Source of the DNA: Microthyrium microscopicum
Taxonomy: Eukaryota > Ascomycota > Dothideomycetes > Microthyriales > Microthyriaceae
Direction of reading: 5' to 3'
Assembly (NCBI GenBank): GCA_010405405.1
Contig: MU004236.1
Span: 1,246,070-1,310,069 of the forward strand
DNA: 64,000 nucleotides
Numbering within the stretch: the first letter of the stretch is position 1; the number at the start of each line of letters is the position of its first letter. Below the pieces are notes generated by a model. The model ran no database searches and was not told the origin of the DNA. It was given only the letters and a program-made list of their open reading frames with translations. Of the stretch, positions 5,550 through 61,462 are shown piece by piece. Made by a program: the position numbers and the translations under genes.

Positions 5550-6689
5550 ATGCCGAGATTACCAGCTGCCAGGCGCCCAAAGTCTCCTGATCTGGCGACT
5601 CTCGAGTTCATAGAGGCTGCACACCTTGAACAATTCGAGAAGGCTCCAGAAGTACTTCAGGCCACTTACCCAGATCTCTTTCTACGGAAGCACTTCCTCA
5701 AGGACTATGAGCTGGACAAAACCATTACACCTAATCCTATTGCAATTCCGAACCTCAACATACTAGCGTGCAAAGAGCTTGAGAAACTCGCTGAGACTAT
5801 TCCTGATCTGAGCACCTACCATGTCCCTTACCAGCGCGAAGGAGTCTTTGCCATCGGATGGGAAAAACAAAAAGTAATTGAGGTTGCAAACGAGGCTGCC
5901 AGACCAGCGAAAGTTGAGCGAAGCGAGAAGGCAAGCGCAGAAGCGGCCGAACTTCGAAAACTCCGGCAGTTCTACAAGGACCATCATGAGCATCACCAAA
6001 GCAATGTCGTAACCAAAGCGAAGACAAGTGCAAAGGATCTCCTCATCATGGCAAAGTCAATAGCCATAGCTCAGACTCTCAACGATCCTGAAGCAATCAA
6101 TTCCTATGTTGGCTCATATGTACTCGAGAGAACAAGTGATAGGCCCTCTGATAAGCCCTCGGGCGAGCTTACACTCGATGTTCACTCCACCGACAGTGCT
6201 GTTCTGACAGGGACCTTCAAGTTTCGTGACGACCAGCTGAGGCCAGTGACGATGTTGATGGCATTCTCAGAATCAGACCTCGAGAAGTACAGAAATCCTC
6301 AGCACCCAGAGTACGACAACCAAGCCCCTGGAGGCACCAAGGACGCTGGACAAGACGAACTAGCTACCAACACCACTGAACGGGAGCTTGAGAATTCTGA
6401 GAGCCGAAAGCGTAAACGGATCCAGAACGGCACTGATTCTCCTAGGAAATGTTGGCGTCAGAACTTCTTCCCTGAACGTCCGAAACGTACACTACTCCAT
6501 ATGATATGGTACCCGCATCCCTTGGGGAAGGATGACATGACTGAAAAACATGGAAGTTTTATCTTTTCCACAGCCACGGCTACTTTCGAAGCCGAAATAG
6601 ATCGTCGCGCAGTCGGAAAGTCAAAAGACTACCTCTTTAAAGGCTGGAGGGTCGATACGCAAGCTGGGGCAACCATATTTGGCACTTGA
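5550..6689 (+). CDS. unknown protein, tandem paralogue A
   Basis: A single-exon gene of 379 aa from the first ATG of the frame. I do not recognise the family. Residues about 75-110 end in an IGWEKQKV block. A charged, Ala/Lys/Glu-rich stretch at about 115-180 is probably helical or coiled coil. It is followed by SYVGSYVLE and GTFKFRDDQ segments that look like a beta-rich domain, a basic ESRKRKR cluster typical of a nuclear signal, and a final segment ending in GWRV. The next gene repeats every one of these blocks in the same order, so the two are tandem duplicates. Unlike paralogue B, this copy lacks the roughly 110-residue first-exon part. It may be nuclear; no function can be assigned. Confidence 0.8.
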   Translation: MPRLPAARRPKSPDLATLEFIEAAHLEQFEKAPEVLQATYPDLFLRKHFLKDYELDKTITPNPIAIPNLNILACKELEKLAETIPDLSTYHVPYQREGVFAIGWEKQKVIEVANEAARPAKVERSEKASAEAAELRKLRQFYKDHHEHHQSNVVTKAKTSAKDLLIMAKSIAIAQTLNDPEAINSYVGSYVLERTSDRPSDKPSGELTLDVHSTDSAVLTGTFKFRDDQLRPVTMLMAFSESDLEKYRNPQHPEYDNQAPGGTKDAGQDELATNTTERELENSESRKRKRIQNGTDSPRKCWRQNFFPERPKRTLLHMIWYPHPLGKDDMTEKHGSFIFSTATATFEAEIDRRAVGKSKDYLFKGWRVDTQAGATIFGT

Positions 6690-7103: not shown

Positions 7104-8656
7104 ATGTCCAAGCCTACCAGGAATCGGCGGAGGACAATAGCTGAGCTAAAAGCAGACGTACCGAAGCCCCCCCAAGCACCCACGGAGAACGAATATCTTT
7201 ATAATGGTAGGCTTCAGCATCAAGGCGTTTACAAAGCCGAGTTCAGTCATATGCTTGTTCTTTTCTCAGGAAGACGGTATTCAATAGACCGGCATTTGAC
7301 CGCAGCATCGAAAGGGGGCTGGAATGCCTACAGTCCCAAGTCATGGTACGAGAAACAACTATGGTTTTATGGTTTCGAATTCGATCCAGCAGCAGAGGCT
7401 GCGGGCCTGAAAACCCAGCTGAAAGGCCTAGTGTTGCTTCACGAAAGGGTCAGTCAGTCATAGTTGCATGCCCCGTTATGTACACACTAACTCATTTCAC
7501 ACAGTCTGGCGGCTTTCAGCCTCGACCGGAGGTTCGCGACGTAGAAGCTCGTCTAAAAGCTATCTGGGAACCATTGGATGCAGCCTATCGAGCAGCTGTA
7601 CAGGCATTCATAGCTGAAGACGAGGCCGAAGACGAGGCCAGAGACCAGGCCCATTTCGAAACGCTTCCACTCCGCGAACAAGTGAAACTAGATTCGAGAT
7701 TTGTTGATAACTACTGTTTGCATGACGATGGGAAGCCGGATAAGACAAAGATTAAACAGCCCTTGTCATTCTCTGATCTCGAACTACATGAGCGCTATAT
7801 GCTTGAAGAGGCCGTGGAAGGAATCCCTGGCCTGACTCTTGTTCACTCTCCATATAATGAGGCCGGTATTGTTACCATTGGTTGGGGCAAACAAAAGGTC
7901 GCCAACTCTGCAGCAAGGGCCATTGAGCTAGCAAGAGAGAAGCAACTTCAAGAAGAATGTAAGAGGAGTGTTGCGAAGCGTAAAGTCATGAAAGAAAAGG
8001 CCGAGAGTCAGCTTGCATTTGCGAAGGCAGTGGCAGAAGCACACGAACTCAAGGATCATGAGAACTTAGAGTCATATGTTGGCTCATATATAGTTGAGTT
8101 CACCAATTCTAGGTCGGTTTATACAGATGGTCCGCTGCATCCCATTGGCGAATTCAATTTCGAAGTAGACTTGAAAGATTCAAGCAGTCTCAGGGGCACA
8201 TTCAAAGACGAATTTCAAACAGGCGCTGTCCAGCTGTCTTTCTCACCTGCGTCGCTCGAGAATGATCAGGCAACACCACAGAGCACCAAGTCGGTCCTGG
8301 GGATGGATAGTGGCGTCCATGGTGGTGCTGAACACGACAAGGAAAACAACGCGGAAGCGAGCAGTACTCGAACAGGTCTCAACAAACGCAAACGCGAGAC
8401 CGCAGAATTCGACGATATTCAGCCAAGCAAACAGATTCGACTTGACTGCCCGCCAGGCCATACAGACTTGTACTTTGTTTTGAGCGAGAAATATCCAAAC
8501 GGTACCTATGGGAAATGCAGCACTGACGGACGATTGAGGTTTTCCAACAACACTGCCACATTTGAGGGCGAGTTCAGACGGTACGGGCCCAGTCCACGTA
8601 CTGTCCGAGGCTGGAGAGTCAACAAGCAGGCAGAGCACATTGATCTTGGGTTGTAA
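7104..8656 (+). CDS. unknown protein, tandem paralogue B
   Basis: Two exons, 7104-7448 and 7505-8656, with GTCAGT donor, a CACTAACTC branch and CACAG acceptor. The phase is zero and the product is 498 aa. The ATG at 7104 is the first in frame. The C-terminal two-thirds align block by block with paralogue A: IGWGKQKV, SYVGSYIVE, GTFKDEFQ, a basic LNKRKRE cluster, and TATFEGEF followed by GWRV. Exon 1 encodes about 115 residues with no counterpart in A (aromatic, with NEYLYNGRLQHQGVY). The IGW/GSY/GTF pattern resembles unannotated, expanded protein families of Leotiomycete and Dothideomycete genomes, but that is from memory only. It may be nuclear; function unknown. Confidence 0.82.
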
Positions 8657-9039: not shown

Positions 9040-10102
9040 ATGAATCTATCAGCAGGAGACATACCTCCAGTAAAGGACCTCACCATCGAAAACATCACAG
9101 AGAATGTTCTCGCCATCAACTCCAGGTGCCCCAATCCACGCATGAAATATCTTTTCGAGCGTTTGACCACCCATTTACACGATTTTGCCCGCGAGACCAG
9201 GCTCAGCACGAGCGAATGGGAGCAATCCATCAAATTTCTTACCAAGGTGGGCCAAATCTGCACCGATGTGCGACAGGAATTTATCCTGCTTTCTGATATA
9301 TTGGGGTTGTCTTTACTTGTGGACTCCATTGATCATCCTAAACCACCAGCTTCGACTGAGGGAACAGTTCTCGGGCCATTCCATACTCATGAGGCTGAGC
9401 TACTTCATCATGGCGATTCGATATCACAAGATCCAGATGGTGAGCCATGCCTTGTCATATGCACAGTCAAAGACACATCAGCCAAGCCCGTTCCTGGAGT
9501 GAAGATAGATGTCTGGGAAGCGGATTCAAAAGGCCTCTATGATGTTCAACGAGCAGATCACAAGGTTTCTGATGGTCGAGCGGTATTGGAGAGTGACGAG
9601 AAAGGTCATTTCCACTTCAAAGCCACTGTACCTGTACCCTATCCTATTCCAAGTGATGGACCGGTCGGAGACTTGCTAAGAAAGCTATATCGTCATCCAT
9701 ATCGACCGAGTCATATGCATTTCATGTTCGAAAAGACTGGATACGATCATCTCATCACGTAAGTCTGCTTCATACAAAAGAGGGCAAAATGAATCACTTG
9801 AATAGATACTAACTTTTCGTAACAGTGCATTGTATCTTCGTGGCGATCCGTACGAGTCTTCGGATGCTGTTTTTGGTGTGAAAGAGTCCCTAGTCGTTGA
9901 TCTTAAAACTGTTTCGGACGTCGAAGGTTTATCAGCAAAATATGGCGTATCGCCATCTACGCGATTACTGAGGTATGACTTCGTCCTCGTGTCAGATCAC
10001 GAAACAGCTGTACTCCGGCAGAAGGAGGCTGAAAAGGAGATCGCCAAACAGAACCGGCACATGAAAATTGTCAATGGCTTGCCCATTCCTGACGTCGATT
10101 AG
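9040..10102 (+). CDS. intradiol ring-cleavage dioxygenase (hydroxyquinol/catechol 1,2-dioxygenase type)
   Basis: Exons 9040-9758 and 9826-10102 (GTAAGT donor, ACTAAC branch, ACAG acceptor) give 331 aa. The four Fe(III) ligands are in place: Tyr167 (KGLYD), Tyr201 (PYPIPSDGP), His225 and His227 (RPSHMHF), with the substrate-orienting Arg just before. This spacing nearly equals that of the well-studied bacterial catechol 1,2-dioxygenase. An N-terminal helical dimerisation domain occupies about residues 15-105. The enzyme opens an aromatic ring between two vicinal hydroxyls using O2, giving a muconate or maleylacetate. The RHPxRPxH context favours hydroxyquinol or catechol over protocatechuate. 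It converges on the activator gene with a gap of about 155 bp and is a plausible target of that regulator pair. The exact substrate is an inference. Confidence 0.9.
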
Positions 10103-10257
10103 ATCAGTTCTGATAAATAATAAAGCTATTGCTCCAAGTCTTCGAGGCTTAATGCGCGCCGTACCATCTACTAAGCACTATATGATATAACAAGAATATG
10201 ATGTTCAGGTAGTCATCCTGAGCAATCCGACTCTTTGCATCGGCTCAACTAATGGTA

Positions 10258-12703
10258 TCATTGGTTGAAATATGACTGGTAGTCGGCTTGGTTGAAATCG
10301 GGCATGAATCCGAGATGCTCCATAAATTCGGGTTGATTAGCCGTCCTGTACTCGGTTGATGTTATTATCGTTTCAAATCTATCTCAAGGTTCTATTCTTG
10401 CCCAGAAGAGAAACTTACCAGTCAACAGGATCTAACATGGCCAAGCTGTTGAACAACGTATCTTCCTCCGACTCATTCGTAAGAGAGTTGGTCAACGGAT
10501 TTTCTGTCCCTTGATCGTATAATGATGGTAAAATTACACCTTGCTCAACGTTGCTGCTATGGCTGAGTTGGGAATGCTGCTCAAGTTGGTATAGATATGA
10601 GGAGGTGGGTGTTTGATAAGACTTTAAGCCTGCATCAGAAAGCCGAGCAGCTGCTGGGAACGTTGTTTCTCTTACTGTTGAAGCGTTTCCAGCAATAGGA
10701 TCCTGAATAGAATTTGCAGCATGTAAAGAGATTTCAGGCACCGGATGCGGCTCGCGCCAGGTTGCTCCAATCTGACTGATCAGCTCTTTGATTTCGTATA
10801 TCAGATCGTCAACTTCAGGCTGAGTTGGCATACTCCTTGGTAAAGCCATGAACTGATTACAAAATAAAAGGTATATTTCGAATGTTGGTGGTAGTGAGAA
10901 TTGTTTCAAAATATGAATGTGCTGTACGATAACAGATATCAATTGACGTGTTTCGCTCAACAATGTTGCCGGTATTGAACCCCCACTGGAATGTAATAGA
11001 GCCTGTCGTTTAATACTCAGAGCCCCGTCCACCGCTGTATAAGCAAGGTTGAGGTTTAGGATTTGTTGTGATACCACTGTCCCTCTGTTGGTCGATTGAT
11101 TTGCGCTTATCTGACAATGAGAGGGCAGTTGTTCTTTCCAGTTCTTGAGGTTATCAGAGACTTTCCATACCTCATTCTCCACTGATAATGTATCTGAATA
11201 TTGAACAAGGTCGTTTAATATAGCCATGAGGGTCAAAAACTGATTGAAAATGCTCAACATCCTTCCAGGGCCAATGCTGAGATTTGGAAATTCTATAACA
11301 CTATTCGAGTCGACGGGCTGCCATGCCTCCCATTCTTCATTGCCGTTGACTTGCACCAGTCCAATGGATGTAAACTCCGTCCGGCTAAGGTATGGACGCC
11401 TTCTTAAATGGGCTGATATGAGAGTGTCGAGGGCGAAGCAACCGAGTACAGCGCGCCTATCACTGTCATCAATAGAGGTAGTCCTGCTATGAGGCCGTTC
11501 AAGATCTACTGGCGGAATGATAGTCAAATCAACAGCGAGATAAACCGCTTGGCCCACAAGAAGCCAAGCTGACGTCCATGATGCACGCCTTATATTGTGT
11601 AGCGCGAGAACAAGGACAGCTCTGATGTGACCAGCATCGTAAGAAGGCTGATCATGACTAACCAGACTTAGCGCGAGCGCCTCAAGTCTTGAAGGCGAAA
11701 AGGGATCCTGTTCGTTATGATCGGTAGCATCGGCTTTCCTATTCGACTGGGGGCAGGGATAGGATGAATAGGTAAACACAGCCCAAAGAAACGCATAATC
11801 TCCAGATGCCAAATGGATATGCTGATCTCGGCTGGAATTGGCTAACTCATACGCAGGTCGCAGTAGGTCGTGCTTCTGTGATATAGGAAACCAGCAGTGA
11901 GTGTTGGCGAAGTAAATATCAAGAAGTTGGCGCCAATTAGGAGGTAATTGTAGATTTTCCTTAGTTCCAGAAATTTGGTTTACTTCATGTTGCATGTCAA
12001 GGGATGGACTGAGATCAGTTATTTGATCAAGAGACATTGCCAGAGTTTGTGGCTCCGAGTTGTCCATAGTTACTGGGCCCTCGTCGTCGTAGTCAGTCAT
12101 GTCTGGTACAATATGATCGATATGAGCGGTTAGTCTGCCAGACGTGACTGACAGAGCATGAATGAGTCTATCCTCAAATCTTTTTAATAGCAAGTCGTCA
12201 TCCTCGGCAGATTCAGCAATTGCTGAAAGCCTTTCCATTTGTTTCACAACCTGGCTTTTTCTCCAAACATCAAGCAAAGACCGCGTCGATGCATTGTGTG
12301 GCTCCAGTGATGTTGTTTCTATCAGGTCCTCTTCTGCATCCAGGAGAGTTGATATCAGATCTTCGCTCCCGTTGATATGTGAGAAGACAATGCCCAGCAG
12401 TAACTCCATCGCTCGAACATATCCCGCAGGAAGCCCACGTTTCTTCGAGGATGCGTTATAAGTGCAAGAGCGTTTGGCATTAACACATTGCCGGCAAGCA
12501 GGTTGTTCGCCATCGCATCGATCTCTCCTTTTTCGGCATTGATCGCAAGCACGCGATACCCTCAAGCGCTTTTTCTGGTGCGGAAGCTCTTCGTCGGTAT
12601 TCTGTGCGCGAGCTCGGGACTTCGAGCTTTGGATGTCAACCTGAGATGCTTTGGACGGTTTTGAGGCAGAACCGGCGCCATCTCCATTGCCGCGTTGAAC
12701 CAT
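10258..12703 (-). CDS. Zn2Cys6 transcriptional activator, QutA/GaaR/TanR type
   Basis: Exon 1 is 12703-10419. A GTAAGT donor, TAAC branch and TACAG acceptor lead to a short exon 2 at 10345-10258, replacing the apparent stop and giving 790 aa. The zinc cluster has Cys53, 56, 63, 70, 73 and 80 (CX2CX6CX6CX2CX6C), followed by a KKRGLPAGY block that is characteristic of the quinate, galacturonate and tannate/gallate activators. A fungal-specific middle homology region spans about 250-600. The short last exon adds an aromatic/acidic tail (EFMEHLGFMPDF...). In this family the activator is held inactive by an AROM-derived repressor until an inducer appears. That repressor is the divergent neighbour, which makes the assignment firm at module level. 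Which of the three known systems it matches, or whether it is a fourth, cannot be settled here. Confidence 0.88.
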
Positions 12704-13678
12704 AGCCAGAGAAGTAGGCTAGCTTGAAAGAAGAATTCATGTGCAAGATAGGCTTCTCAATCAAAGCCTGGCAAAAAAACAAATTGAAAAGGTAGACTCG
12801 AAATGCAACAACCCCTTATGGCTTAGTTGTGAGAATCGGGGTCATGTTGTTACTGTTCCCGTATTGAGCAATCTAACACGCTCATCGAGGGAGAGAGGGA
12901 AATACCAGCTCAACCATGTAAAGAAAATCCGGAGCGTCCACTTATCATATCACAGTCTGCGAAGTAGTCAACTAACGCAGAGCATGGCAAGAAGAAAGAA
13001 GTTGAAGCTCTCGCGTTGCAAAGTGGATACCAAAATGAACGAGTGGGGTAACGGATCGTGATTCGTGACAGAGATCCTCCACAGTTGCAACAATGGAAGT
13101 CAAAACTACATGCCTAAGCCACTTACATCCTCGAGCCGATATCATACCCAGAATCGATCAGGGCCTTGTGTACTTACCGAGCGAGATGTGCCTTGATACC
13201 AGGCTGTAAGTAAACTACAATACCTCTTATCTTATAAAAGGGTACATGCCGTACTCGTCGGTGGTATTCTTGACCAGTATACTCTTGCGGGTCATTTTAA
13301 CATAGCCAGGGCGCAGTGAAGGTGAACACTGAGGTTGCCGCTGGGCCATCCAACCAATCTGGCCCGGAAAGACTACTTCCTTTCTTGCCCACTGCTCTCT
13401 CATTTCCTGATAGCCACCAACACTTGTGCTTAACCTCTAAGCAAGGCCCAGAAGGAAAGACTATACTCCATATCAGCAATAACTACCTGGGCTCTTGTGG
13501 ATCCGATACAATTGCGCTTGAAAACTGCCATTCTCCTCGGGGATCAAATGCTGGTCTACCTGGAGAACAGTTACTTGCTACTCCGTAGTCAATACCTCAA
13601 CAAATGCACAAGCCTGGCTAACAAGTCTCTCGTCAGAACTTCTTGACGAATCTACAAACACTTGGTTCCAATTCCCCT
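12704..13678. promoter_or_regulatory. shared divergent promoter of activator and repressor
   Basis: 975 bp separates the two start codons. A TATA-like CTTATAAAAGG lies near 13230-13242, facing the repressor gene. Short frames here (for example 12741-13061 and 13316-13588) start at no good ATG or have no motif. I found no exact 16 bp QutA/Qa-1F palindrome by eye. The head-to-head arrangement resembles qa-1F/qa-1S in Neurospora. Confidence 0.55.
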
Positions 13679-16339
13679 ATGGCTATGGCTACAAAGCGAG
13701 GTCTTGAAGACGAGCTTCCATTTCCACGTCAAGGTAGCTCTGAGACTAGGACTGCCTCGAAATCAAATATTTCACCTTCTTCTCGCAGTCGGGCCAATAG
13801 CCAAGGCATCCTATCGCAGAACGATTCCAAATTTCCACGTCCAGGAAATAACGGCAACTTGGGGCCCACATGTACAAATTCGAGCTCCTTTGCGCCAGAT
13901 GCTTCCATCGTTTTGATTGGCATTCGCGGGACAGGCAAGTCAAGTCTTGCCATCATTGCATCGTCAGCACTTGGATTTCGAGTAATTGATGCGGATCGAC
14001 ATTTCTTCCAAATTACGGGACTGTCAAGAGCTGCTTTCAACGCTAGGCATGGGGTTCGAGAATACAGGCGACGTGAATTACAGATCATGCGTTCAGTGCT
14101 ACTGGACAACCAAATAAGATGTGTCATAACCTGCGGACCGGGCTCTGTACAAGGAGAGGGTCAAAATTTGCTCGTGGAATATTCAAAAACACATCCTGTC
14201 ATTAATATATTACGAGATACAGATGAGATTCAGCGCTATCTGAGTTCATGGGATAAGAAGACTATTTCTGACTTGGTTGAGCTGACGGCTCCATCGTACA
14301 GAGCCTCGTCTGGCTTTGAATTTTACAACATTTCCGAGTCACCCTCATACGGACTGGAAGAACTCGCAGTATCCAAATATCCTCCAACTCTCACCTTGAA
14401 GAACTTACAACAAGACTTCCTCCAGTTCGTCTACAAGGTTATCAAACAGCCATCATGTAATTATGAAATTGAAGCAGGAGACCCTATCTCCTCGATTGCG
14501 CCCGAGTCCAAACAATATACCTACGCTTTAGAGATTCAGTTCTCGGCTCTGATGTCATTTGGTACCGAATTACGAGACCTGAAGTCGACAGCCGATGCCA
14601 TTGAGTTTGTGGTAGATTTGCCACTTTTTTCTCACGGCAAAAGCACATTTTGCAGCTCTGTAGCCAACAATATCAGCAGACAATTCTATCTCATTCGACG
14701 CTATACACAAATCCCCATCATCTTCCACGTCCCACCAATCAAGTCACACTTACACATAACGTCCAGAGTCATTGATGCAGACCAAATCGAGGCCGCCTAT
14801 CTAGAACTACTCCGTTTTGGGCTTCGTCTCTCCCCAGAATACCTTTCCATTGATATCACATGTAATGACCAAAGGATAAGAGATGTAATAGCTACCAGAT
14901 GCTCAACAAAGGTTATCGGACATTTCTGTGATACTGAACCCGGACCTGATGGTTGGGTTTCTCATGACCGCAAGCAAAAGCTTCGGCTGGCCGAGGAGTT
15001 GGGTTGTGATCTAGTCCGGATATGTCAGGAGGCTGCTTCCATGCTGGACAATATATCATTACAACGTTTCGTTCATGAGATCAAAACTTCAAAATTGGCC
15101 ACTCAACCCTTGATCGCATACAACACAGGCCCTTTAGGTCGCATGTCATGTTGGCAAAATCCCACACTTACTCCAGTCACGAATTCCTTACTTCGGTCAC
15201 TTGACCCAAGAGGCTCTTCGAACTGGCTACTCACCATTCAAGAAGCCCAGAACGCCCTATATGCGTCTTTCACTCTAGATAAGATGTACTTCGGCGTTCT
15301 TGGTGCAAATGTCAGCTCAAGTCTTTCCCCTGCTATGCACAACGCTGCATATCGATTCTGTGGAATGCCCCATGAATACAAGATCTTTCAGTATTCTTCA
15401 CTAAAAGAAATGGAGCACGTTTTTCGGGATCCCTATTTCGGAGGTGCAAGCATCACTGCTCCTTTCAAAAGGGAAATGACTCTGTTCGTCGACTACATGA
15501 GTGCAGAGGCACGGGTGATTGGTGCTGTGAATACATTAGTGCCTTTGAGGGCCAAGACACTTGCCTCTTTGCTGGACAGATCTCAAGCAGGGCCAATCGT
15601 TGCCTTTTACGGCGAGTGTACAGACTGGATTGGAATCCATACCTGCGCTTCTCGCAACCTCTCTCCAGTCAATACCGTCAATGAGCGCACTACTGCATTG
15701 GTGCTTGGAGCTGGGGGTATGGCTCGTGCTGCAGTGTATGCTTTGATCAGACTTGGAGTTCGAAATATCTTGATTCACAACAGAACTTTGAAGAAAGCAC
15801 AAGAAGTTGCAAATCACTTCACAGATTGGTCCTCTCGGGATGCCACGACCGGTTCAATTTCAGACTGGGATGCTTTTGTAAAGACAGTGGCGAATGGAGC
15901 CAGTCATTTTGAGCGTAGACCTGATATCGAAGTTGTCAAGTCTTTGAATGATACACCTCAATTCTCTACTTCACCAACAATTATAATATCTACACTCCCA
16001 GGGCACAATGCCGGACAATCTATCCCAATTAACAACACTATTCCTTCAAGTTGGATCTCAAGTCAGACTGGTGGAGTCGTACTTGAAGTGAGTACATCCA
16101 TAAATTGCCGTATTCTAGACTGGCTAACCGCAATTTAGCTTGCCTACACTCCTCTTCAAACACCGCTTCTGCAACAGTTTAGCGCTGAGAGTCACCGAGG
16201 CTGGATAGTTGTGAACGGTTTACAGGTTTTACCAGAGTACGGCGCTCCTCAATTCGAGCTTTTTACTGGAAGGAAGGCACCACGACAACTAATGAGTGCT
16301 GCTGCAATGTCCGGGTATGAAGAACAGCAAAATCACTGA
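13679..16339 (+). CDS. quinate-repressor-like transcriptional repressor (AROM-derived, QutR/GaaX/TanX type)
   Basis: Exons 13679-16087 and 16139-16339, with a 51 nt intron (GTGAGT donor, GCTAACC branch), give 869 aa, close to QutR and Qa-1S. The start is the first ATG. Domains in order: a Ser-rich leader; a shikimate-kinase-like domain with P-loop GIRGTGKS at 81-88; a type I dehydroquinase-like domain; and a shikimate-dehydrogenase-like domain with NAD(P)-type GAGGMA and a C-terminal QFELFTGRKAPRQLM block. By eye the dehydroquinase His is Cys417 and the Schiff-base Lys is Arg447, so that step should be dead. The dehydrogenase Lys597 and Asp649 are kept. Such proteins bind pathway intermediates and inhibit the partner activator. 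The divergent neighbour is that activator. Confidence 0.92.
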
Positions 16340-16602
16340 ATCTAGAGACTGCCCGTTCAGTCATTGCTCTAATCTGAGTCTCAAAGCCATGTTGAAGCAG
16401 CGCTAAAAAAACTGTATCTGTCTGAAAGTGCTCTAACGCGGTTAGCACATTTTCCGCTGAAAGTTAGTCCCTGTTAGAGATAAATTGTTTGATAATCAGT
16501 CATGTGAGTACTAATCTATAAATTCAAGGTTACTGCGACTATTGTATTACTCGTCATTCGAGGCAACAACTGCGCTGGATTATCAAAGAAAACAATACTG
16601 TG

Positions 16603-17363
16603 ATGATGATTGACTTACACTCACTGCCGGAAGGTTGGAGGCCTGCAGAAGACAAAGCGGTTCGAAATAACGGGCCAGATCACTTGGTCCTGGAGAGATT
16701 GAAGCTTCGCGAATTGGCTGAAGGATGGCCATGTTATCGGTAAGATTCTTATCATCTTTTTAACCTCTAATGTTAATCCGTGAAACTAGTGATGCGTGCG
16801 AATGGGAAAATTTCGCTTCTATATTTCATCCTGATGCTCATGTTTACACCACTTGGTCCGGTCGAGTTTCTTACGAAGATTTTATCAAAGTGTCTAAGAC
16901 GGGAATGGATGCTGGCGCATTCATAATGCACAGATGTCATGGCACAACGACCGACATAAACCTATCCGCGAGTCGTGCTGTAACGAAGATGAAAGCAACA
17001 ATCACTCAAAGATTTGTCATTGATGGTTGTGAAGTCGATGCTGAATGCGACTGTCGGTTTTGCTTCTTCTTTGAGAAAAGAAATGATCGATGGGGTGCAG
17101 TACTGGTTCGGCATTGGTATGAAAAGGATAAATTGATTCCAACTAATCCAGGCAAAGTACCAAAGCTGGATGAGGAGAAACTGCTCACTTATCCACCGTC
17201 ATACAAGTTTCTGGCTTATTGCCAGGAAGCCACGATGGAGGTCAAAGTTCTGAAGGATATGCCAGGTCATAGACGAAATACTGGAACAAGGAATGGAGAA
17301 AAGCACGATCTATTGTATGATATGAGCAGACGCTGGGTGGAGGGAGAGGATATTGAAGTATAA
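16603..17363 (+). CDS. SnoaL-like (NTF2-fold) protein
   Basis: Exons 16603-16739 and 16790-17363 (GTAAGA donor, CTAATG-like branch, CTAG acceptor) join in phase to 236 aa; a second ATG follows the first directly. Residues about 25-160 look like a SnoaL_4-type alpha/beta barrel: the [15 protein letters not shown] block, then YTTWSG, and a later [11 protein letters not shown] strand pair. Family members include polyketide cyclases and small-molecule isomerases or dehydratases, and many are of unknown activity. It starts 263 bp after the repressor on the same strand, so it may belong to the same aromatic module. No secretion signal is seen. The fold call is fair; the reaction is unknown. Confidence 0.8.
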
Positions 17364-17829: not shown

Positions 17830-18621
17830 ATGAGAGCATCCTGGCTCTTCGGCCTTTTGGTGGCCTCAGCAAGTAAGTTGGAGAGTCCAAGGCAATATAG
17901 GGTACATGATTCATTATAGGCAGGTAACACCTTTGCTATACCAACGCAGGAAGATGTTCAAGGCTTACCAAAGGATCTCACGCTCCGAATACTGCCATTG
18001 GGAGATAGCATAACTAATGGCATGGGAAGCTCTAAAGGCGACAGCTATCGCAAAGACCTCTTCGACAAACTGACCGCTGCGGGGGCTAAAGTGGAATATC
18101 TTGGATCTCAAAAGTCTGGATCATTCTCACAAAACAGTCATGAAGGCTGGATCGGTTTCGAGATCGACAAGATATCGCAAAAAGCAGATGACCCAAAGGC
18201 ACTTGGCGCAAAACCAAACCTGGTTTTGCTACTCGCTGGTACAAATGATATTGCACATAGTCAACGAAACGGTGCACCACAGCGTCTCCAGAAACTGGCG
18301 GAGAAGATCACTACTCGGGTGCCAGGAGTTGTCTTGATCGTTGGGACCCTGCCTCCATTCGCAGCCAAATACATGCCGTCCGGCCAAGGAGGAGATTCTG
18401 CACCATGGATAAATGAGTTCAATACCGCTGCGTCAAAGATTGCGAAGAGTATGGCAGAAAAAGGGGCAAAGGTCGCCATGGCAGATTTGAGCGCAGTAAA
18501 GCTTGGAGACTTACAAGATGGCATTCACCCAAATGATGGAGGGTACAGGAAGATGTCTGCTGGCTGGTTCAAAGCTATCGAAGAAGTCGCCGCCAAGGGT
18601 TGGCTGAAAGGCTCCAGTTGA
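17830..18621 (+). CDS. secreted SGNH-hydrolase esterase, carbohydrate esterase family 3-like
   Basis: A 43 nt first exon (17830-17872) joins 17924-18621 across a 51 nt intron with GTAAGT donor and CAG acceptor; the product is 246 aa. The first exon supplies most of a signal peptide (MRASWLFGLLVASAS) with likely cleavage after the Ala near residue 19. SGNH blocks are complete: nucleophile Ser43 in LPLGDSITNG, GTND in block III, and Asp213/His216 in DGIHPND. The GYR/SYRxxL spacing and the DHEG/SHEG-like segment resemble CE3 acetylxylan esterases, which remove acetyl groups from plant-wall xylan outside the cell. It is the last gene before the RIP block. All catalytic residues are present. The substrate is an inference. 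Confidence 0.88.
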
Positions 18622-18839: not shown

Positions 18840-20067
18840 AATTAGCTATCTAACCCAATTAGGTTTTGGCACGTATATGCTAATACGTCTAACCACATAT
18901 TACTATTTTATATAACAAATTCAAAGAAGAACTCTAGCCCCTAATACGCCCTTATCCTAAATTAATAATTCCTAATTAATAACTCCTAAGAACTTATTAA
19001 AAACTAAATAATAAAAATAATATTATAAAGATATAAATATATATGCTACTTATACTTAGCATAAGCTAATATAGGCTAAAGACTATTATACTACTAGTAT
19101 CTAATATAAGAGTTAATACTAGCTAGAATATATTTATTAATAATACTAAGATATAAGAGTCTAATACTACTAAAGTTATATTATAATACTAATATAAAAG
19201 TTAGCTATCTATTAGTTTATAAGTATTTATGCCTTAATTAATTCCTATAATTAATTTATAAATCTTCTATTCCTTTAGTTCTCTTTATTAATTATAAAGA
19301 TATAACTATCTTTATTTATAATACTACTATAACCTCTTAATTATCTATACCTATTTAAAGACTTTTATCTATCTACTAGTTCTTATCTTTATTACTATAA
19401 AGGAAGGATAAGTAAGTCCTAGATAGAGATACCTAAGTATATAGTTTATTAAGTACTACCTATCTATATAGTATTTACTATAGGAATAGTTCCTAGTACT
19501 AGATTATAAGAAAGTTATCCTCTTCTTATAACCTATAGTTATCTACTTAAGAGGAAATATCTCCCTAATTATATAGTTTACTTCCTTAGTTAAATAATAA
19601 TTAGTATATACTTAAGGTTAAATTATACTACCTTCTTCTTACGCTAAGCTTAAAGATTTACTTTCTTAGTCTAATATTCTTTAAAGGCGGCCTAATTTGT
19701 CTTATTACATTATTCTTCTTAATATATCTAAGTAGCATCTATATATCTAAGATCTTATATACTTAAAGTATCTAAAAAAAATAAAGTAGTAAGCTTAGCT
19801 AGTATAGGACTCTTTATTATTTTCTTATAACTTTTTACTCTACCTATACTTATCTATATTTTATAGCGCTATTCTAAGAAAGTAGAATAAGTATAAAGTA
19901 TATAATATAGAGTCTAATTTAAGAAACTATTATAATATTAGTAGGCTAGGCTATTAATCTTACCTATATTCTAGAAATTATAGTAAAGACTTATTTTATT
20001 AGTATAAAGCTAGACTAGGATAGTAGATAGTAAACGCTTATAGTTTTAATATAGGTTAGGTACCTAC
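18840..20067. repeat. unidentified decayed repeat left of the LTR element
   Basis: 1.2 kb of RIP-like sequence outside the LTR retrotransposon. I could not assign it to a family and found no inverted or direct counterpart on the other side of the block. Confidence 0.5.
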
Positions 20068-20072
20068 CTACT

Positions 20073-20391
20073 TATAAAGGATAGTTTAAAGCAAGGAAAA
20101 TAGATTCTAAGAACTAGTATTAAGATAAGACTAATACTTAATCTTCTAAGAGATTAAGTTTATCTCTTTACTTATACTCCTCTCTATCTTTTCTTTAGTA
20201 AGGCTATCTCTCCTTTTTATTCTTAGCTTTATTTTAGCTTCGTCTTATTATAGTAGAGAATAGATATTATCTACATTAACCTAGTAGTTTATTAATAAAA
20301 AGCCTTTCTATAATATACTATAAGAATAAAGCAAGTAAAGAAGTAGTAAAATACTTATATCTCTATAGCAAGTTTATAAAAGTCTATAATA
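20073..20391 (-). repeat. 3' LTR of the 8.77 kb element
   Basis: 319 bp direct repeat of 28524-28842, preceded by the CTACT target duplication; the differences seen are mostly transitions. Confidence 0.9.
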
Positions 20392-23300
20392 AAGCCTTCT
20401 TTCCTAAAGAAAGTTACCTTTAACGACTTAGCTATTATACCTTCCTCTTTTAGTAGGTATAGTCTTAATCTATAGTATTCTTACCTTTAGAGTTACTATA
20501 GTACCTACTATATAGGTAATAATAACTCTATTTATTATAATAGTATTGCGTATATATATAATACTAAAATATTTTAGAACTATAATATTTTATCTTCTTA
20601 ATATTATAACCTTTTCTTCTTATAAGTAATTTATAAGTATATTACCTACTTAAAATCTTAAAAGTTTTTAAAACTATATCTCTTTAGAGTCCTTAATTTA
20701 ACTTATACCCTTTTCGTACTTTATTTATACTTTCTTTACCTATCTTTAATATTTTTAGCTTTTTAATATACGTTCTAATAGCGTTTTAATTATTCTTTTA
20801 TAATATCTTCTTATTATTATTTTAGTAGTTCATATAGTAGTAATTTATCTTATTAAGACCCTATTAATATTAATTCCTTTAATAATAATGACTTTATTAA
20901 TAATAATAATTTATAGAAGAGTAAGTAATTAGTTAACCTTAACCTAGATAATTATTCTCTAAGAATATATTACGCTTTTTAGGAGTTTTAATAATCTTAA
21001 TAATATAGTAGCTAACCTTCTAAGCGTATAACTTATTAACGTTTTACTACTTCTTATACTCTATAGAGTCTTTAACGCGTCCTTAAGGAGCTTAAGTTAC
21101 GTAATTATAACTTAATCTAACTTACTAACTAGGTAGCCCTCTTAAAGCCTTAGGAAGGCTTATTAACCCTTTATATCTTATTATCCTTAAGCTATATTAT
21201 TATTAGTACTAATTTACTATTTATTTCTTATTTAGCCTAATGTAGTATTAATAGCTTTTATTACCTACTTTAAGTACCTTTTAGTACTACTATAATTAAC
21301 TTAATTATTAATTTTACTCTATAGCTAACTTATATTCTATGCATTTCTTAAGCTAATAGAAAACGTTATTATAAAGATACTTTATTACTAAAGTTTTTAT
21401 AGCTACTTATTACTTATTCTATAATTAAGAAGTAAACTACTTACTAAGGTACTCTTACGCTATCTTATATATTATTCCTAAATAATAAAAAGTCTAAGTT
21501 AGATAACTTACCTAATAAGCTAGGAGATATAAACCTAGGTCCTATAGCCTAGACTACTTAGTAGTAGGCCTTTATAGTAAGTATATTATAAGTAACTTAC
21601 CTAATTCTTTTACTAACTTATACCTTTATAGAATATTACTTAGATTATATTTTGCTTTTAAGCTATACCTACTCTACTTCTTTTTCTATATTACCTTTAA
21701 TATTTATAGAATATTATTAATAATATAATCTACTATTATCTTAATAGTAGCTATATTTTATAAAGTACTATATATAGTTATAAAGATAACTTTACTAAAT
21801 ACTATTATTATATTTACTAGAAGTACTATTATAATATTATAAATATTTTATTAGTAACTTAGATATAGCTTACGTACTAACTTTTATTTAGGTATTTATA
21901 GTCTTTAATAAGATTATAAATAACCTAATCTACTTACGTATTTACCTTATGTCTCTTAACTTTATAAGTTCTATTATAGTTATTACGTCTTTAAGTTCCT
22001 TTATTAAGTTTTATTAGCGTAGTAATATATACTATATTTATAATAAGAAGTTAATATATTATTAATAAGCCTATAATACTTTCATTATAGCTTAGCGTTA
22101 TATAAAGAGTTACTTAGAAGGCTATAGCTATCTTATAGCCTTAAATATAATATTCTATATTTACGCTATACTTAGTTATATTAGAGATACGCTAAAGTAG
22201 GCTAATAATATTTAGTATCTTAATATAGGTTCTTTTACGTTTTATTTATAAGTTATACTTCTACTAACTATTATTTCTAGAATTATTTTCTATTTATATC
22301 TTATATTTAGTTATAGGTTTAAGTATTTATTTAGCCTATAGTAATCTACCTAGAAGGCTTTAAACTACTTAATCCTTACTAGGAGCTAGGTCTTATTACT
22401 AATAACCCTTTATTATCTCTACTTATTAGTAATCTACCTATATAAAGCAATTGTCCTTATATTTACTTCTTATCTCCTTTAGTCTAAAATAAGAAGAATA
22501 TTACTATATTTAGGGCTTATATACCTCCTAAATTTATCTTAGACGTTAGTACTTTATACTTTATAGTATATTTGCCTACTATAGAGAAGGTTAAGAATAA
22601 GAAGGTAAGTAGTATATAGACTAAGTAGTCTAATAAAGAGACTATACTACCCTTCTATAGCTCTTCTTTAGCTACCTAGGTTTAGGCTTAATATACTAAT
22701 AAAATAGCTTACTTTCTTTACTAATTTTAGTAGCATTATACTACTAGTAGAGTAACTACTTATTATAACCTAGATAGTAGTATTAATTCTATTAGTACTA
22801 ATCCTAGCTATTTTTATCCTTCTCTTATATTTATAATACCTATAACTTATAATATTTCTTTACTTACTTACCTATTTATTAATAATACGTTAATTACCTT
22901 AGCTATATCTATTACGTACTCCTTTCTTAGTAGTCCTAAAGTAACTAATAGTATCTAATACTTACTTTTAAAGTTATAGCGTCCTAATATATAGAGTTAG
23001 AGTTTAGTAATTAGGTTACGTTTTAGTTATATAAATATTATATTTATTTATTTCTTTAGGTATAAGTTATTAGTCTTAATATCTTTTAGGACTAGCCTTT
23101 TTATTAACTTACTATTTATAGTTATAACGTTTAGGAAAAATTCTTATTTTTTATTATATTTACTAATAGTTTACTCTTTCTATCTCTATAAAAGAAAATC
23201 TTTTTTTTATAGTACTAGTCTACTAGTTTCTTATAAGACCTCTTAATTTTATTTAGGTTTTATTTACGTCTTGCTAGTAATTTACCTAGCTATAATTTTT

Positions 23301-26300
23301 ACTATTTCTATTTTTAGTTTTCTATTTTTTATTCTACTAGTTAGTTACTTTTCTATAGTAAATAAAAAGTATATAAAAATCTCTTCTCTCTTATAACGCT
23401 TTTCTTTATAGTTTTATTCTTCTCTTTTTCTTTTCTTTATAATAGTAAGCTTAAATTTATTAGCTTCTTTAAAAATCTTAATTAAGTTTTATGCGTTTTT
23501 ATAGTCTTCTTCTTATTCTTAAGAGTTATAAGTTAAAGGATAGCTTTATTAATAGATAAAGTATTTAACTTTTTCTTTCTATTTTCTTTTATCTAAAATA
23601 GCTCTTATCTTCTATTCCTCTTTATCTTCTAGCTTAATAGCTATAGAAAGCTTTAGTTTTTCTTAATCTTTTCTTTAATAATATAGCTTAAGTTTAGATA
23701 TATAAAAGACGTTATAGATTTAGTAGCTTATTAAAAGGTTTAGTTAGTAGGCTTATTCTTTAACTATATCTTAAATACTAAATAATTCTATATAGTAAGG
23801 AGCTAGCTTCTTACTTAGTAGTTTAAGTTTAATATTCTCTATTAATAGTAAGATCTTATCTTCTATATAAAATAATATTAAAGTATACTTCTTATTATAG
23901 AACTTAACTTAATATTCTACTACTTTTTCTTAGCGTTTTACTATCTTTTCTTAGTTTTATTTTATTTTTACTACTCTTTACTTTACTATTATTACCTTAC
24001 TTTCCTCTTCTTTAAGCTTATCTTTAGAGTCTATAAGAAAGTTTATTAAGAAAGTTAATTTATATCCTATTTTAGCTATATTTAGAGTATAGTTAAGTAT
24101 TTTATTATAAGACGTATTTATTACCTATTATATTATAAGTAGAAAGCTTAACTAGTTTATCTAGTTTTTAATAGTAAAAGCTTATAAGTAATATCTTAGT
24201 ACTAAGTTTTACTACTTAGTTTAGCTATTAATTTATAGATACTAGGCTATAGATAGCTTATATTTTACCTTTCTTACTTAGTATAGTTTAGTCTAAAATT
24301 TACTTATAAAGATAGATCCTCTATCTAATATAATACCTACTAGTAAGCCTTTTTCTAAAAAAACTCTTCTTTTTATAAGTTTTACTAACTCTTTAGTAGT
24401 TATATCTTTTATAGTTTTAATATACCTTATTTATTTAGTATATTAATTTATAATTATTAGTATAGTATTAAATATTATAAGTTTATATTTATAAGGTAAT
24501 AAACTTATAATAAAGTCTATAGTAATTTCTTACTATAATTAGGTTAGTTAAAGTAAAGACTTTAACTTACTATAAGATTAATGCTATTTTACTTTTATTC
24601 TTTAGTAAACTAAGTAAGTCTTTATATATACCTATATGTTCTTTTTTATCTTTAGCTAGTAAAACTATTTATAAAGTAGTTTTATAGTGCTTTAAACTTC
24701 TAAGTATCTTACTAGTAGGTTATTATAATATATTACTAAGAGTTTATTTCTTAAGATAAGTTTATAGAGTATATATAGTTAGCTCTTATAATAAAGGTAG
24801 TCTCTTTAGACTAACTAAGTATTCTTTAACTATTAAGTCTCTTTAAACTCTAGCTATATATTAAGTACTTTTTAGATATACTTAAGTTCTTTATTATTAT
24901 CTTAAGTAACTTAGACTAAGGTAATTAGTACGTCTAAAGCTTTTCTATTTATAATATATAAGTCTTATATTACTTTTTTTACTATAGTTCTTAAAATATA
25001 GATATAGTCTAAAGTAGTAACTATTTTTTAAAAGCTAAAGGAGTCTTTACTCTTCTTACTTATAGTATCTTAGCTACTTATTTACTTATAAGGCATCTTA
25101 TTTATTCTTAATACGTTTAGTACTAAGTAATACTTAATATTAAATATTTTATCTATAAGGTTATACTTATTTATTATTAGTATCTTACTAGTAAGTTACT
25201 TTATTAGCTTAAGACTATTTATAAAGACTAGCTTTTTCTATTTCTTTTTTAAGAAGAGTTCTAGCTTTTTTTAAAAAGTAGGTAGTAAGTTATTTATAGC
25301 TTATTCTATAGTAGTATAGTTAAGTTATTTTAATAATATATCTATAAAATTTATCTTTTTGCTTTAATACCTAATATAGAAGTTATACTTTATTAATATA
25401 ATTATTTAGTATACTTAGTACTTATTTAAGTTCTTCTATTTTATAAACCTTACTAAGTTATTATAGTTAGTTAGAATCTTAATAGAGTAATAACTACCCT
25501 TAAGGTAATATTACTAATATTTTATAGTCTTAATAATAGTAAGAAGCTCCTAATTATAAATTTAATAGTTAATCTTAGCCTCTATTAATTTCCTTAACTA
25601 GAAAGCAATAGAGTACTATTAGCTATTTTTCTATAGCTAAGAAAGAATACTTATAATAGTATACTAGGACGTATTAGTCTTAAGGTAGATCCTTTTCTTT
25701 AAGTTAAAATATATAAAGATAAGAGCTTTATTAAAAGCTACGTAAAATATATAAAACGCTTATACTACTTCCTTTATTTAGATAAAAGGTTTATATTTTT
25801 TTTTAAGTTATATACCCTTAAATAAATTAGTTAAGGGTTTTATTACCTTTAAGTAGCCTTTAATAAACCTATAGTAGAAATTTATAAAGCTAATAAATAC
25901 TTATATATTATTATAGCTCCTAAGTTCTAGCTACTTTATAATAGACTTAACTTAACTAAGATTTATTTTTACTTCTTTTATAAAGACTATAAAACTAAGG
26001 AATTCTACTTTATTAATAAAGAATTAGTACTTTTTAAGATTAGTATAAAGCTTAGTAGCTAGTAAATATTTTAATATAGTATATACGTTATAAATATAAT
26101 TCTTATACGTTTTAAAGAAGATAAAGATATTATTAAGGTAGATAATATAGATAATATCTAAGAGTCTTATTAATACTTTATAAATATAAACTTAAAACGT
26201 AGCTAAGGTATTAGTAAGTCTAAAAAGTATAACTTAGTATTTATAGTATCTATACTAGGTATAAAATACTATTTTCTATTAATCTTATTCTTTAATAAGT

Positions 26301-28523
26301 ATTTAGGTATAAGTATTCTTAAAGTCTATCTTAGTATAGTATATTACTCTATTAAGTTAATCTAATATCTTACTTATTAAAGAAAGTAGGTAATAGTTCT
26401 TAATAGTAATTACGTTAAGTAGGTAGTAATCTATATAAAGTTATAATTCTCTATCTTTTTTAAGTATAAAGAATATAAGTACTTTAGCTAAGCTAGTTAA
26501 TTCCTAAATTTAGCCTTTTATAAAGGCTAACTTAAGGTATTCTTATAGTACCTTAAGTTTTATTATTAATAAGTTATAAATAAGTCTAAAAGAAGAGTCT
26601 ATAATTATCTTAATAGTATATTTAATACCTTTAAGAATAAGTTTATTCTTATTCTTAGCCTTAACTTAAGAGGCTAAATTCTATAGCTCTTATAGTAGTC
26701 TATTCTCTAAATTAATATTTGCCTATAAGCTTAGCTTAAAGCTAATATTAGAAATCTTTACCTTTTTGCTATTTAAGTATAGGTACTTATTAAATTTTAT
26801 AGTTAGTTTAAATACCTTACTATATTCTTATAACCCTTCCTTAAATATACTTTAGTCTATAATCTTATATTTTAGCTTCTCTTTCTTAAATAGCTACTTC
26901 TTCTATCTTAAGTAGATAGAAATATTATATTTCTCTTATAAGAAGATTCTTTATACTATAGAATAAGTATATTTAGTTTAATTAAAAAAGAAGAAATAGT
27001 ATTTAATATCCTTATAGATATTAAAAAAGTCCTTATAATAAAAACGTAGCTAATACGTACTATAATATTTACTTTTTATTATATTATTAGTAAAACTTAT
27101 AGCTTAGATGCTTTCTATAGTTACTTTTTTAAGGCTATAGCGTTATATAAGTTATTTATTAATAATATTAATTTAATTACTAGTATCTAAGAAGACGTTT
27201 ATAGATTAATCTTTTATAGTAAAAAAAAGGTTAGCTATTATCTAAATCTATATTTCTATAGTCTAATCTAGTATTATAAAAATAAAGTATTTAACCTTTA
27301 TAATACTTACTCTTTTTTTAGGTTAGTTCTAGATTCTAATAAGAAAAGAATAATATTTAGGTTCCTTCTCTAGTCTCTATATTCTAAAAATTCTCCTTAT
27401 CTTTAGGTAGCCTAAGAGTCTCTTAGAGGCTTATTATACTTATTTACATAATATCTAAATAGATTATAATTATAATAAGTAATTTCTTTATATATTTTAT
27501 TATCTTTTCTAAGCTTTATACTTACTAGCAAGTAAGTTAATAATATATACTTTATATAATCTTTACGCCCTTATTATTTACTTTAGCTACCTTACGGATT
27601 ATAATTTAATTAGGGGGGTTAAGGATTAATATTATTTAATAAGTTTTCTTATAAATACTTATAAATAATTTACTAAAAGTATTTAGTAGTATTAACTATA
27701 TTAGGTCTAGTAGTTAAAATATACTCTATTAATTTAATCTATTTCTATAGTTCTAAGGTTAGCTTAGTAAAGAATTTTAAGTATTATTTATCTCTTTTAT
27801 AAGTTATATTAATACTAAGTTAAGTCTCTAGTAAGTTTAAGTAGGCGTTAAACTTTATAGGAGTCTAGGTAGAACGCTACTTAGCTTCTTTAAGTTTCTT
27901 AATAACTAAAAGTTTAGCTATAGCAAAATAAGTATATTAATATTAGAGCTATTTTATAAACTTCTCTTAAGTCTAAGTTAGTAGCTTAATCTTCTTCTTC
28001 TTTAGGTTCTATTAAGTTTATAGATTAGGACTTATAAATTAGCTAGCTTATTTAATATAGCTCTCTTATATAGTAAATTAAGAAAGTACTAAATAGAAAG
28101 CATTTTCTATACTTATAGTCTAATTAATAAGTTTTTATTAAGTTTTGCGTTAAAGGACTATAAGGTTAGTAGGTTTTAGTTCTCTTAGTTAAGAAGAAAG
28201 AGGAGAATTCTATTATAAGGCCTATAATAAGGCTATAATCTTATTATAAAGTTATTACGTCTTAGCTATATATACCTATTCTTATTTATTAATTTAAGCT
28301 ATTACTATATAAAGGGTAGCTAAAGTAGCTTCTAAGTCTATTAATAGTAGTAGGCTATTATATTAACTTAAGTTATTATCTAAGTTATTATTTAAGTTAT
28401 TATTTAAGTCTTTATCTTTGTCTTTACCTCTATTTTAGCCTTTATTAAAGTTTCTTATGCCCTTTATTATTATAAGGATCTATTAGGTTTGCTACTATAT
28501 AGTACGTTAAGAAGTATTAGAAT

Positions 28524-28842
28524 TATAAAGAATAGTTTAAAGTAAGGAAAATAGATTCTAAGAATTAGTATTAAGATAAGACTAATACTTAATCTTTTAA
28601 GAGATTAAGTCTACCTCTTTACTTATACTCCTCTCTATCTTCTCTTTAGTAAGGCTACTTCTCCTTCTTATCTTTAGCTTTATTTTAGCTTTATCTTATT
28701 ATAATAAAGGATAAGTACTATCTACGTTAACTTAGTAGTTCGCTAGTAAAGAGCCTTCCTATAGCGTATTATAAGAGTAAAGCGAGTAAGAAGGTAGCAA
28801 GATACCTACGCCTCTATAGCAAGTCCGTAGAGGTCCATAACA
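28524..28842 (-). repeat. 5' LTR of the 8.77 kb element
   Basis: 319 bp direct repeat of 20073-20391, followed directly by the CTACT target duplication. It keeps more CA/TG at its right end than its partner. Confidence 0.9.
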
Positions 28843-28847
28843 CTACT

Positions 28848-30160: not shown

Positions 30161-30317
30161 ACATTAGGGAGAACTCTTCGTTCTCAACCCTTGTGTCGTG
30201 AGTGCTAGGTCGGTGTAGATGGAGCAGGGAAAACTTGTCTGGCGCGAAGCGAGATCCGTGCATGCGGCTCCAACGGTGGTTGTCATCAAGGCATCTTGTT
30301 CTCGATCGATTTCAAAC

Positions 30318-44349: not shown

Positions 44350-44410
44350 ATCCTAGCTCTTTAATAATAATTCCTAGCTCTTTAACGATAATTCCTAGCT
44401 CTTTAATTAG
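44350..44410. repeat. three tandem 20-21 bp units
   Basis: Three consecutive copies of a unit reading ATTCCTAGCTCTTTAA plus a few variable bases. They lie inside the left arm of the DNA transposon, ahead of the plus-strand fossil frame. Multiple copies near a transposon end could be transposase binding sites; that is only a suggestion. Confidence 0.7.
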
Positions 44411-61457: not shown

Positions 61458-61462
61458 ATATT

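What the first reader, a model, noticed from the sequence alone, without database searches (positions are those of the whole stretch)
9040..17363. Activator/AROM-type repressor module next to a ring-cleavage dioxygenase, without quinate enzymes
A QutA/GaaR/TanR-type activator and a QutR/GaaX/TanX-type repressor are head-to-head, with an intradiol dioxygenase on one side and a SnoaL-like protein on the other. Known modules of this design control quinate (QutA/QutR, Qa-1F/Qa-1S), galacturonate (GaaR/GaaX) and tannic/gallic acid (TanR/TanX). Here none of the quinate or galacturonate enzymes is nearby. The local targets may be hydroxyquinol/catechol-type catabolism, possibly a further, undescribed inducer specificity.
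Basis: partly seen in the sequence, partly recalled or inferred. Interest (0 to 1): 0.75.

Follow-up and report, generated by a model that had tools for sequence, protein, structure and literature searches.

The report
Regulator pair beside aromatic-acid breakdown genes
A fungal on/off switch of the kind that controls quinate or tannin use sits here between an enzyme likely to strip carbon dioxide from plant phenolic acids and one that opens the resulting ring, which suggests a job for a related Aspergillus switch whose function is unknown.

Summary
In detail: a Zn2Cys6 activator and an AROM-like repressor stand head-to-head, with an intradiol dioxygenase on one side and a SnoaL-fold gene on the other. 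The locus reads as a two-step route: hydroxybenzoic acid to catechol/pyrogallol-type phenol to ring cleavage. The repressor has lost its dehydroquinase site (1 of 9 residues kept) but keeps its shikimate-dehydrogenase site (13 of 15), which I take as the inducer pocket. A. niger has a fourth such module of unknown function; an AGDC1 homologue lies within three locus tags of it. Against: no shared promoter motif was found; the decarboxylase lacks the potassium-site glutamate that AGDC1 needs; the fourth-module repressor differs in detectable domains. The genome's quinate genes lie on another contig with no regulator beside them and no other QutA/QutR-type pair was found, so 'this is QutA/QutR' is not excluded. 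New variant of a known kind.

The parts
9040..10102 (+). Intradiol ring-cleavage dioxygenase, hydroxyquinol type; exons 9040-9758 and 9826-10102, 331 aa
   Evidence: motifs GLYDVQ, YPIPSDGPVG and RPSHMHF carry the expected Tyr-Tyr-His-His iron ligands (ligand assignment recalled)
10415..12703 (-). Zn2Cys6 activator of QutA/GaaR/TanR kind, 762 aa, one exon
   Evidence: Zn_clus E 2e-7, Fungal_trans E 1.4e-17
12704..13678 (.). Divergent intergenic region (975 bp), presumed shared promoter of activator and repressor
   Evidence: Coordinates; no motif established
13679..16339 (+). AROM-like repressor, 869 aa; exons 13679-16087 and 16139-16339; shikimate kinase-, dehydroquinase- and shikimate dehydrogenase-like domains
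16603..17363 (+). AGDC1/PPP2-like hydroxybenzoate decarboxylase (SnoaL_4 fold), 236 aa; exons 16603-16739 and 16790-17363
17830..18621 (+). Possible member: GDSL-type esterase with a signal-like N-terminus, 466 bp downstream on the same strand
   Evidence: first exon and signal read by eye; no evidence of co-regulation

Best explanation
The locus is a compact inducible catabolic module for hydroxybenzoic acids. The SnoaL-fold enzyme removes CO2 from a protocatechuate- or gallate-type acid, and the dioxygenase opens the resulting catechol/pyrogallol-type ring. The divergent activator drives these genes (inferred). The AROM-like repressor holds the activator inactive (proposed for the family in print, inferred here) until a shikimate-shaped hydroxy-acid binds its retained shikimate-dehydrogenase-like pocket (inferred from residue conservation). 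It works like QutA/QutR and TanR/TanX; by neighbouring genes it most resembles the A. niger 4th module NRRL3_07604/07605, but orthology was not tested. Shown: gene content, order, families, site residues. Inferred: substrate, regulation, inducer site, physiological role.
For: Decarboxylase family and eight conserved substrate/catalytic residues W35, R39, D40, T60, W61, H86, Y150, Q192 (roles from PMC7862292). In Blastobotrys the same two enzyme classes act in series, Agdc1p then Acdo1p, on gallate and protocatechuate. Only one AGDC1-like gene was found in the genome and it lies beside the pair. Repressor: dehydrogenase-like site 13 of 15 kept, dehydroquinase site 1 of 9. A. niger 4th module: AGDC1 homologue NRRL3_07601 and dehydroshikimate dehydratase paralogue NRRL3_07603 have neighbouring tags, and NRRL3_07601 is not induced more than 2-fold in the tanX deletion.
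Against: No 7-mer is common to the three local promoters; shared 4-mer dyads are 2 against a mean of 2.97 in 30 shuffles. E88, essential in AGDC1 (E88A is dead), is Cys; Y146, which docking links to gallate, is Val as in PPP2; V148 is His; D124 is Glu; E49 (cobalt site) is Ser. The 4th-module repressor lacks a detectable PF01487 domain while this one has it. The window has no dehydroshikimate dehydratase beside the pair; it is on C2. In A. niger the TanR-controlled AGDC1 homologue is dispensable for growth on gallate and so are 17 ring-cleavage genes together, so family membership does not prove a role in gallate use. A likely protocatechuate 3,4-dioxygenase branch exists elsewhere in this genome, so the route may be redundant for protocatechuate.
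Confidence: 0.5

Rival explanations
1. The pair is this genome's QutA/QutR, separated from its quinate enzymes and controlling them in trans. The local decarboxylase and dioxygenase are then a further branch for the protocatechuate that quinate yields, or bystanders.
For: A five-gene quinate cluster at about C2:623.3-631.8 kb has no zinc-cluster gene and no AROM-like gene within C2:609.0-648.7 kb. The searches found no other AROM-like repressor except a GaaX-like one. A. niger qdhA is also unlinked to its regulators. In Ceratocystidaceae a catechol dioxygenase gene (CDO4) is flanked by quinate enzymes and a GAL4-type factor. The domain set found here also suits QutR.
Against: The pair is not linked to quinate enzymes. 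A QA-1F-like palindrome (consensus recalled) with 2 mismatches lies upstream of the C2 dehydroshikimate dehydratase, and none with 3 or fewer lies in the three window promoters; a looser form has one 3-mismatch match there, out of 34 in the window. The dehydroquinase site, proposed in print as the QutR inducer site, is lost here; whether QutR keeps it was not tested.
Confidence: 0.24
2. The pair is the TanR/TanX orthologue controlling tannin and gallate use, here physically linked to a gallate decarboxylase and a pyrogallol-cleaving dioxygenase.
For: In A. niger TanR/TanX controls an AGDC1 homologue, NRRL3_06002, with 95.8-fold induction in the tanX deletion. The genome has tannase-family (PF07519) matches at four places. 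tanR/tanX also share a bidirectional promoter.
Against: The residue linked to gallate (Y146) is Val, as in PPP2 on which gallate is a poor substrate. NRRL3_06002 is not linked to tanR/tanX by locus tag. Tannase/feruloyl esterase genes are common and unspecific evidence.
Confidence: 0.16
3. The neighbours are not targets of the pair, or the decarboxylase is no longer active: the linkage is accidental or a relic.
For: No shared promoter motif; E88 replaced by Cys and V148 by His; the module stands next to an AT-rich block with RIP-like dinucleotide bias.
Against: Eight other named active-site residues are intact, all frames are open, and random placement this close is unlikely (post hoc).
Confidence: 0.2

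Closest known systems
A. niger 4th activator/repressor module NRRL3_07604/NRRL3_07605 (function unknown)
   Same: Zn2Cys6 gene and AROM-like gene sharing a divergent promoter; an AGDC1 homologue, NRRL3_07601, within three locus tags
   Different: Its repressor lacks detectable PF01487, this one has it; NRRL3_07603 beside it is a dehydroshikimate dehydratase paralogue, absent here; a dioxygenase beside it is not reported in the passages read; sequences not compared
TanR/TanX of A. niger (tannic and gallic acid)
   Same: Divergent pair; controls an AGDC1 homologue
   Different: Targets not linked to the pair in A. niger; sequences not compared
QutA/QutR and Qa-1F/Qa-1S (quinate)
   Same: Domain set of the repressor and divergent promoter
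   Different: Quinate enzymes not linked here; sequences not compared
GaaR/GaaX (galacturonate)
   Same: Activator with AROM-like repressor
   Different: GaaX shows only PF01487 and gaaR/gaaX are head-to-tail; the C11 gene of this genome fits that pattern better
AGDC1 - Acdo1 pathway of Blastobotrys
   Same: Same two enzyme classes in series
   Different: No AROM-type regulator pair appears in the passages read; the window decarboxylase lacks the E88 and Y146 equivalents
ZCF10 and ZCF25 hydroxybenzene clusters of Candida albicans; dioxygenase clusters of Ceratocystidaceae
   Same: Zinc-cluster factor beside ring-cleavage genes
   Different: No AROM-like repressor is mentioned in the passages read

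Membership tests
AROM-type activator/repressor module | Zn2Cys6 gene adjacent to a gene with SKI, dehydroquinase and shikimate dehydrogenase domains | tested here: met
AROM-type activator/repressor module | Repressor binds and silences the activator until an inducer binds | not testable with these tools
   Proposed in print
QutA/QutR | Linkage to quinate enzymes | tested here: not met
   Quinate genes on C2; linkage is not strict in the family
QutA/QutR | Regulators inside the Qut clade | not testable with these tools
   No fungal reference sequences reachable; no other QutA/QutR-type pair found in this genome
TanR/TanX | Regulators inside the Tan clade; control of tannases | not testable with these tools
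   Tannase-family matches at four places only leave it open
GaaR/GaaX | Repressor with only PF01487 recognisable; genes head-to-tail | tested here: not met
A. niger 4th module NRRL3_07604/07605 | AGDC1 homologue close by | tested here: met
   for A. niger from locus tags
A. niger 4th module NRRL3_07604/07605 | PF01487 not detectable in the repressor | tested here: not met
   PF01487 E 1.7e-29 against the report
A. niger 4th module NRRL3_07604/07605 | Sequence orthology | not testable with these tools
   Sequences not held
AGDC1/PPP2 decarboxylases | Sequence similarity over the whole chain | tested here: met
   E 1.4e-47 and 8.7e-45
AGDC1/PPP2 decarboxylases | His-Asp dyad (H86, D40), Trp clamp (W35, W61), R39, T60, Y150, Q192 | tested here: met
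AGDC1/PPP2 decarboxylases | Potassium-site glutamate E88 | tested here: not met
   Cys in the window protein; so it is called AGDC1/PPP2-like, not filed as a potassium-dependent AGDC1
AGDC1/PPP2 decarboxylases | Decarboxylation of gallate or protocatechuate | not testable with these tools
   Needs an enzyme assay
Intradiol dioxygenases of hydroxyquinol type | Dioxygenase_N plus Dioxygenase_C, Tyr2His2 iron ligands, closest to hydroxyquinol enzymes | tested here: met
   ligand assignment recalled; the substrate is not testable here

The most novel reading that the evidence does not exclude
This is a further physiological class of AROM-type regulator: a dedicated switch for non-oxidative decarboxylation of hydroxybenzoates. 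Its repressor has turned the shikimate-dehydrogenase fold into the sensor while the dehydroquinase site is dead, the mirror image of the GaaX-like protein, which keeps the dehydroquinase site and has lost the rest. The A. niger 4th module would be the same system, and the decarboxylase a Cys-for-Glu variant that does not use the AGDC1 potassium site.
Probability: 0.33. Interest if true: 0.75.

Novelty: new variant of a known kind. Interest (0 to 1): 0.57.

Why it matters
It gives a testable substrate prediction for an A. niger module that papers of 2021 and 2025 still list as of unknown function. It suggests a rule for this repressor family: the enzyme pocket that stays intact marks the inducer site. 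It also raises a structural question, since a metal-site glutamate that AGDC1 needs is replaced in a natural relative.

Tried and rejected
Shared regulatory motif. Exact words, 6-base palindromes, 4-mer dyads against 30 dinucleotide shuffles, CGG dyads and the recalled QA-1F consensus were tried on the three window promoters and, in part, on three C2 quinate promoters; no motif common to the window promoters beyond chance. One 9-mer (CAACCAATC) is shared by the dioxygenase and divergent promoters only. The looser palindrome has one 3-mismatch match in the decarboxylase promoter, of 34 in the window.

Relatives elsewhere. Decarboxylase against genome contigs (11 pattern matches, none confirmed) and repressor against viral contigs (1 match, none confirmed). 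The metagenome collection allowed no scan. No fungal phylogeny was possible, and I did not use QutR or QutA sequences recalled from memory as data.

Considered and set aside. Galacturonate identity (domain pattern and orientation). A hydroxyquinol-only pathway: two Fe-ADH matches exist but were not resolved into maleylacetate reductase. 'Only QutA-type activator': the other 15 matches of the activator lie in its N-terminal zinc-cluster region, but two of them, L010 and L012, have a loosely similar segment behind the cluster, so I claim only that no other AROM-linked pair was found. Loci L039-L041 were fetched and not examined. In one search the position labelled SKI E61 is one residue short; at the right place (R58+3) AROM and window both have Glu.

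Papers, what I saw. PMC10512348: abstract, section 10, section 16 part 1, passages. PMC7862292: abstract, section 9, section 13 part 1. PMC6528562: section 17 and passages. PMC9204233: abstract and passages. PMC12610400, PMC12388069, PMC8896014, PMC10735191, PMC5605622, PMC10406623, PMC6769594 and PMC12625712: passages. Niu et al. 2017 is not held and is known only through other papers.
Full report
Observation. All four genes are present in the order and orientation reported: dioxygenase (+), activator (-), repressor (+), SnoaL gene (+). Dioxygenase and activator converge, 312 bp apart; activator and repressor diverge from 975 bp; 263 bp separate repressor and SnoaL gene (coordinates).

The SnoaL gene. 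Its only solved relatives at E <= 0.001 are AGDC1 gallate decarboxylase (6w54/7kd9, E 1.4e-47) and PPP2 (7jmr/7jmv, E 8.7e-45), at 45.1% (82 of 182) and 42.7% (76 of 178) identity over the stretches aligned. An upstream exon, missed by simple ORF reading, supplies the clamp Trp and most of the codon for the substrate-anchoring Arg. Of nine substrate-site or catalytic residues named in PMC7862292, eight are conserved (W35, R39, D40, T60, W61, H86, Y150, Q192). The ninth, Y146, which docking links to gallate, is Val, as in PPP2, on which gallate is a poor substrate. Further differences: E88 to Cys (potassium site; E88A is dead in AGDC1), V148 to His, D124 to Glu, and E49 (cobalt site) to Ser. 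I therefore call it AGDC1/PPP2-like in chemistry by inference and do not file it as a potassium-dependent AGDC1. One such gene was found in the genome.

The dioxygenase. Five solved sequences match with E below 1e-60: two named hydroxyquinol 1,2-dioxygenase, one 6-chlorohydroxyquinol-1,2-dioxygenase, PnpC, and an unnamed intradiol enzyme; the best catechol 1,2-dioxygenase reaches 1.2e-29. Blastobotrys Acdo1p accepts catechol, hydroxyquinol and pyrogallol, so this does not fix the substrate. Two Dioxygenase_N genes were found in the genome; the other, on C2, sits with a lactonase-type gene and a 524-aa hydrolase and looks like the protocatechuate 3,4-dioxygenase branch. Protocatechuate thus probably has a standard route elsewhere, and the window route would be additional.

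The regulators. In six-frame searches three genes have DHquinase_I: AROM (C4), the window repressor and a C11 gene. The C11 gene shows only DHquinase_I, as reported for GaaX, and a Fungal_trans gene follows it on the same strand, though no unbroken zinc cluster was found there; I call it GaaX-like. The window activator has 16 matches in the genome including itself; the other 15 lie in its N-terminal zinc-cluster region, best E 1.9e-9. A five-gene quinate cluster lies at about C2:623.3-631.8 kb (permease by eye), with no zinc cluster or AROM-like gene found between 609.0 and 648.7 kb. So either the window pair serves quinate in trans, or this fungus has lost QutA/QutR or has a form too diverged to be found.

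Repressor as sensor. Residue labels follow the bacterial enzymes and are recalled. Against the genome's own AROM, the window repressor keeps 1 of 9 dehydroquinase-site residues (catalytic His to Cys, Schiff-base Lys to Arg), 13 of 15 shikimate-dehydrogenase positions including the catalytic Lys and Asp (lost: N100, Q244), and 8 of 11 shikimate-kinase positions plus one Thr/Ser swap. The C11 protein is the reverse: 9 of 9, 3 of 15 and 1 of 11. A tenth dehydroquinase position was set aside because AROM itself does not have the expected residue there; one kinase position was mis-indexed, and at the right place AROM and window agree while C11 does not. Overall identity of the window repressor to AROM is 24.2, 25.7 and 34.5% in the three domains. 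PMC6528562 already proposes that GaaX binds its keto-acid inducer in the dehydroquinase domain, and cites non-inducible qa-1S mutations in the dehydrogenase-like domain, but also a proposal that QutR binds dehydroquinate in the dehydroquinase-like domain. My inference is that in the window repressor the inducer sits in the dehydrogenase-like pocket, which would suit protocatechuate, gallate or dehydroshikimate.

Relation to known modules. A. niger has four modules; the fourth, NRRL3_07604/07605, has unknown function. NRRL3_07601, an AGDC1 homologue not induced more than 2-fold in the tanX deletion, and NRRL3_07603, a dehydroshikimate dehydratase paralogue, have neighbouring tags. Together they would make dehydroshikimate to protocatechuate to catechol. 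A search for these tags found two papers; in the passages read neither links NRRL3_07601 to that module. Searches, of whose hits I read only the papers listed, showed no paper describing such a module with AGDC1-type and dioxygenase genes. Tag proximity is taken as chromosomal proximity; I did not see A. niger sequence.

Against. No promoter motif supports co-regulation. The 4th-module repressor lacks detectable PF01487, this one has it. E88 is absent. In A. niger neither the TanR-controlled AGDC1 homologue nor any of 17 ring-cleavage genes is needed for growth on gallate. In Ceratocystidaceae a catechol dioxygenase is linked to quinate genes and a GAL4-type factor, which favours the Qut rival. 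Without a phylogeny the choice between 4th-module-like, Qut and Tan stays open; my weights are about 0.5, 0.25 and 0.15, the rest an unlisted class.

Changes made on re-reading: the wording on the five dioxygenase matches, the ninth substrate residue, the activator claim and the Ceratocystidaceae evidence were mended, and confidence was set slightly lower for the Ceratocystidaceae result.

Verdict.

Noticed in passing
L007:832-3003 (C11): GaaX-like repressor keeps 9 of 9 tested dehydroquinase-site residues including the Schiff-base Lys but lost the kinase and dehydrogenase sites; fits the printed idea that its keto-acid inducer binds the dehydroquinase domain.
   Followed up: partly
L027:4337-9901 and L030:1-2918 (C2): Quinate cluster (type II dehydroquinase, inositol-phosphatase-like gene, quinate dehydrogenase, permease by eye, dehydroshikimate dehydratase-like gene) with no regulator found beside it; a QA-1F-like palindrome at L030:1208.
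   Followed up: partly
window 18851-30200 and 44001-62000: AT-rich blocks (GC 22.6% and 28.4%) with RIP-like dinucleotide bias (composite index 1.70 and 1.49, against -0.73 in the module); the module ends next to the first.
   Followed up: partly
window 5550-6689 and 7343-8656: Two neighbouring ORFs that look like tandem paralogues by eye and match no Pfam family at E <= 0.001.
   Followed up: no
window 17830-18621: GDSL-type esterase with a signal-like N-terminus (by eye) just downstream of the decarboxylase; best solved match 2vpt, lipolytic enzyme, E 6.4e-17. Could release phenolic acids from esters; untested.
   Followed up: partly
[quoted passage not shown]
   Followed up: partly
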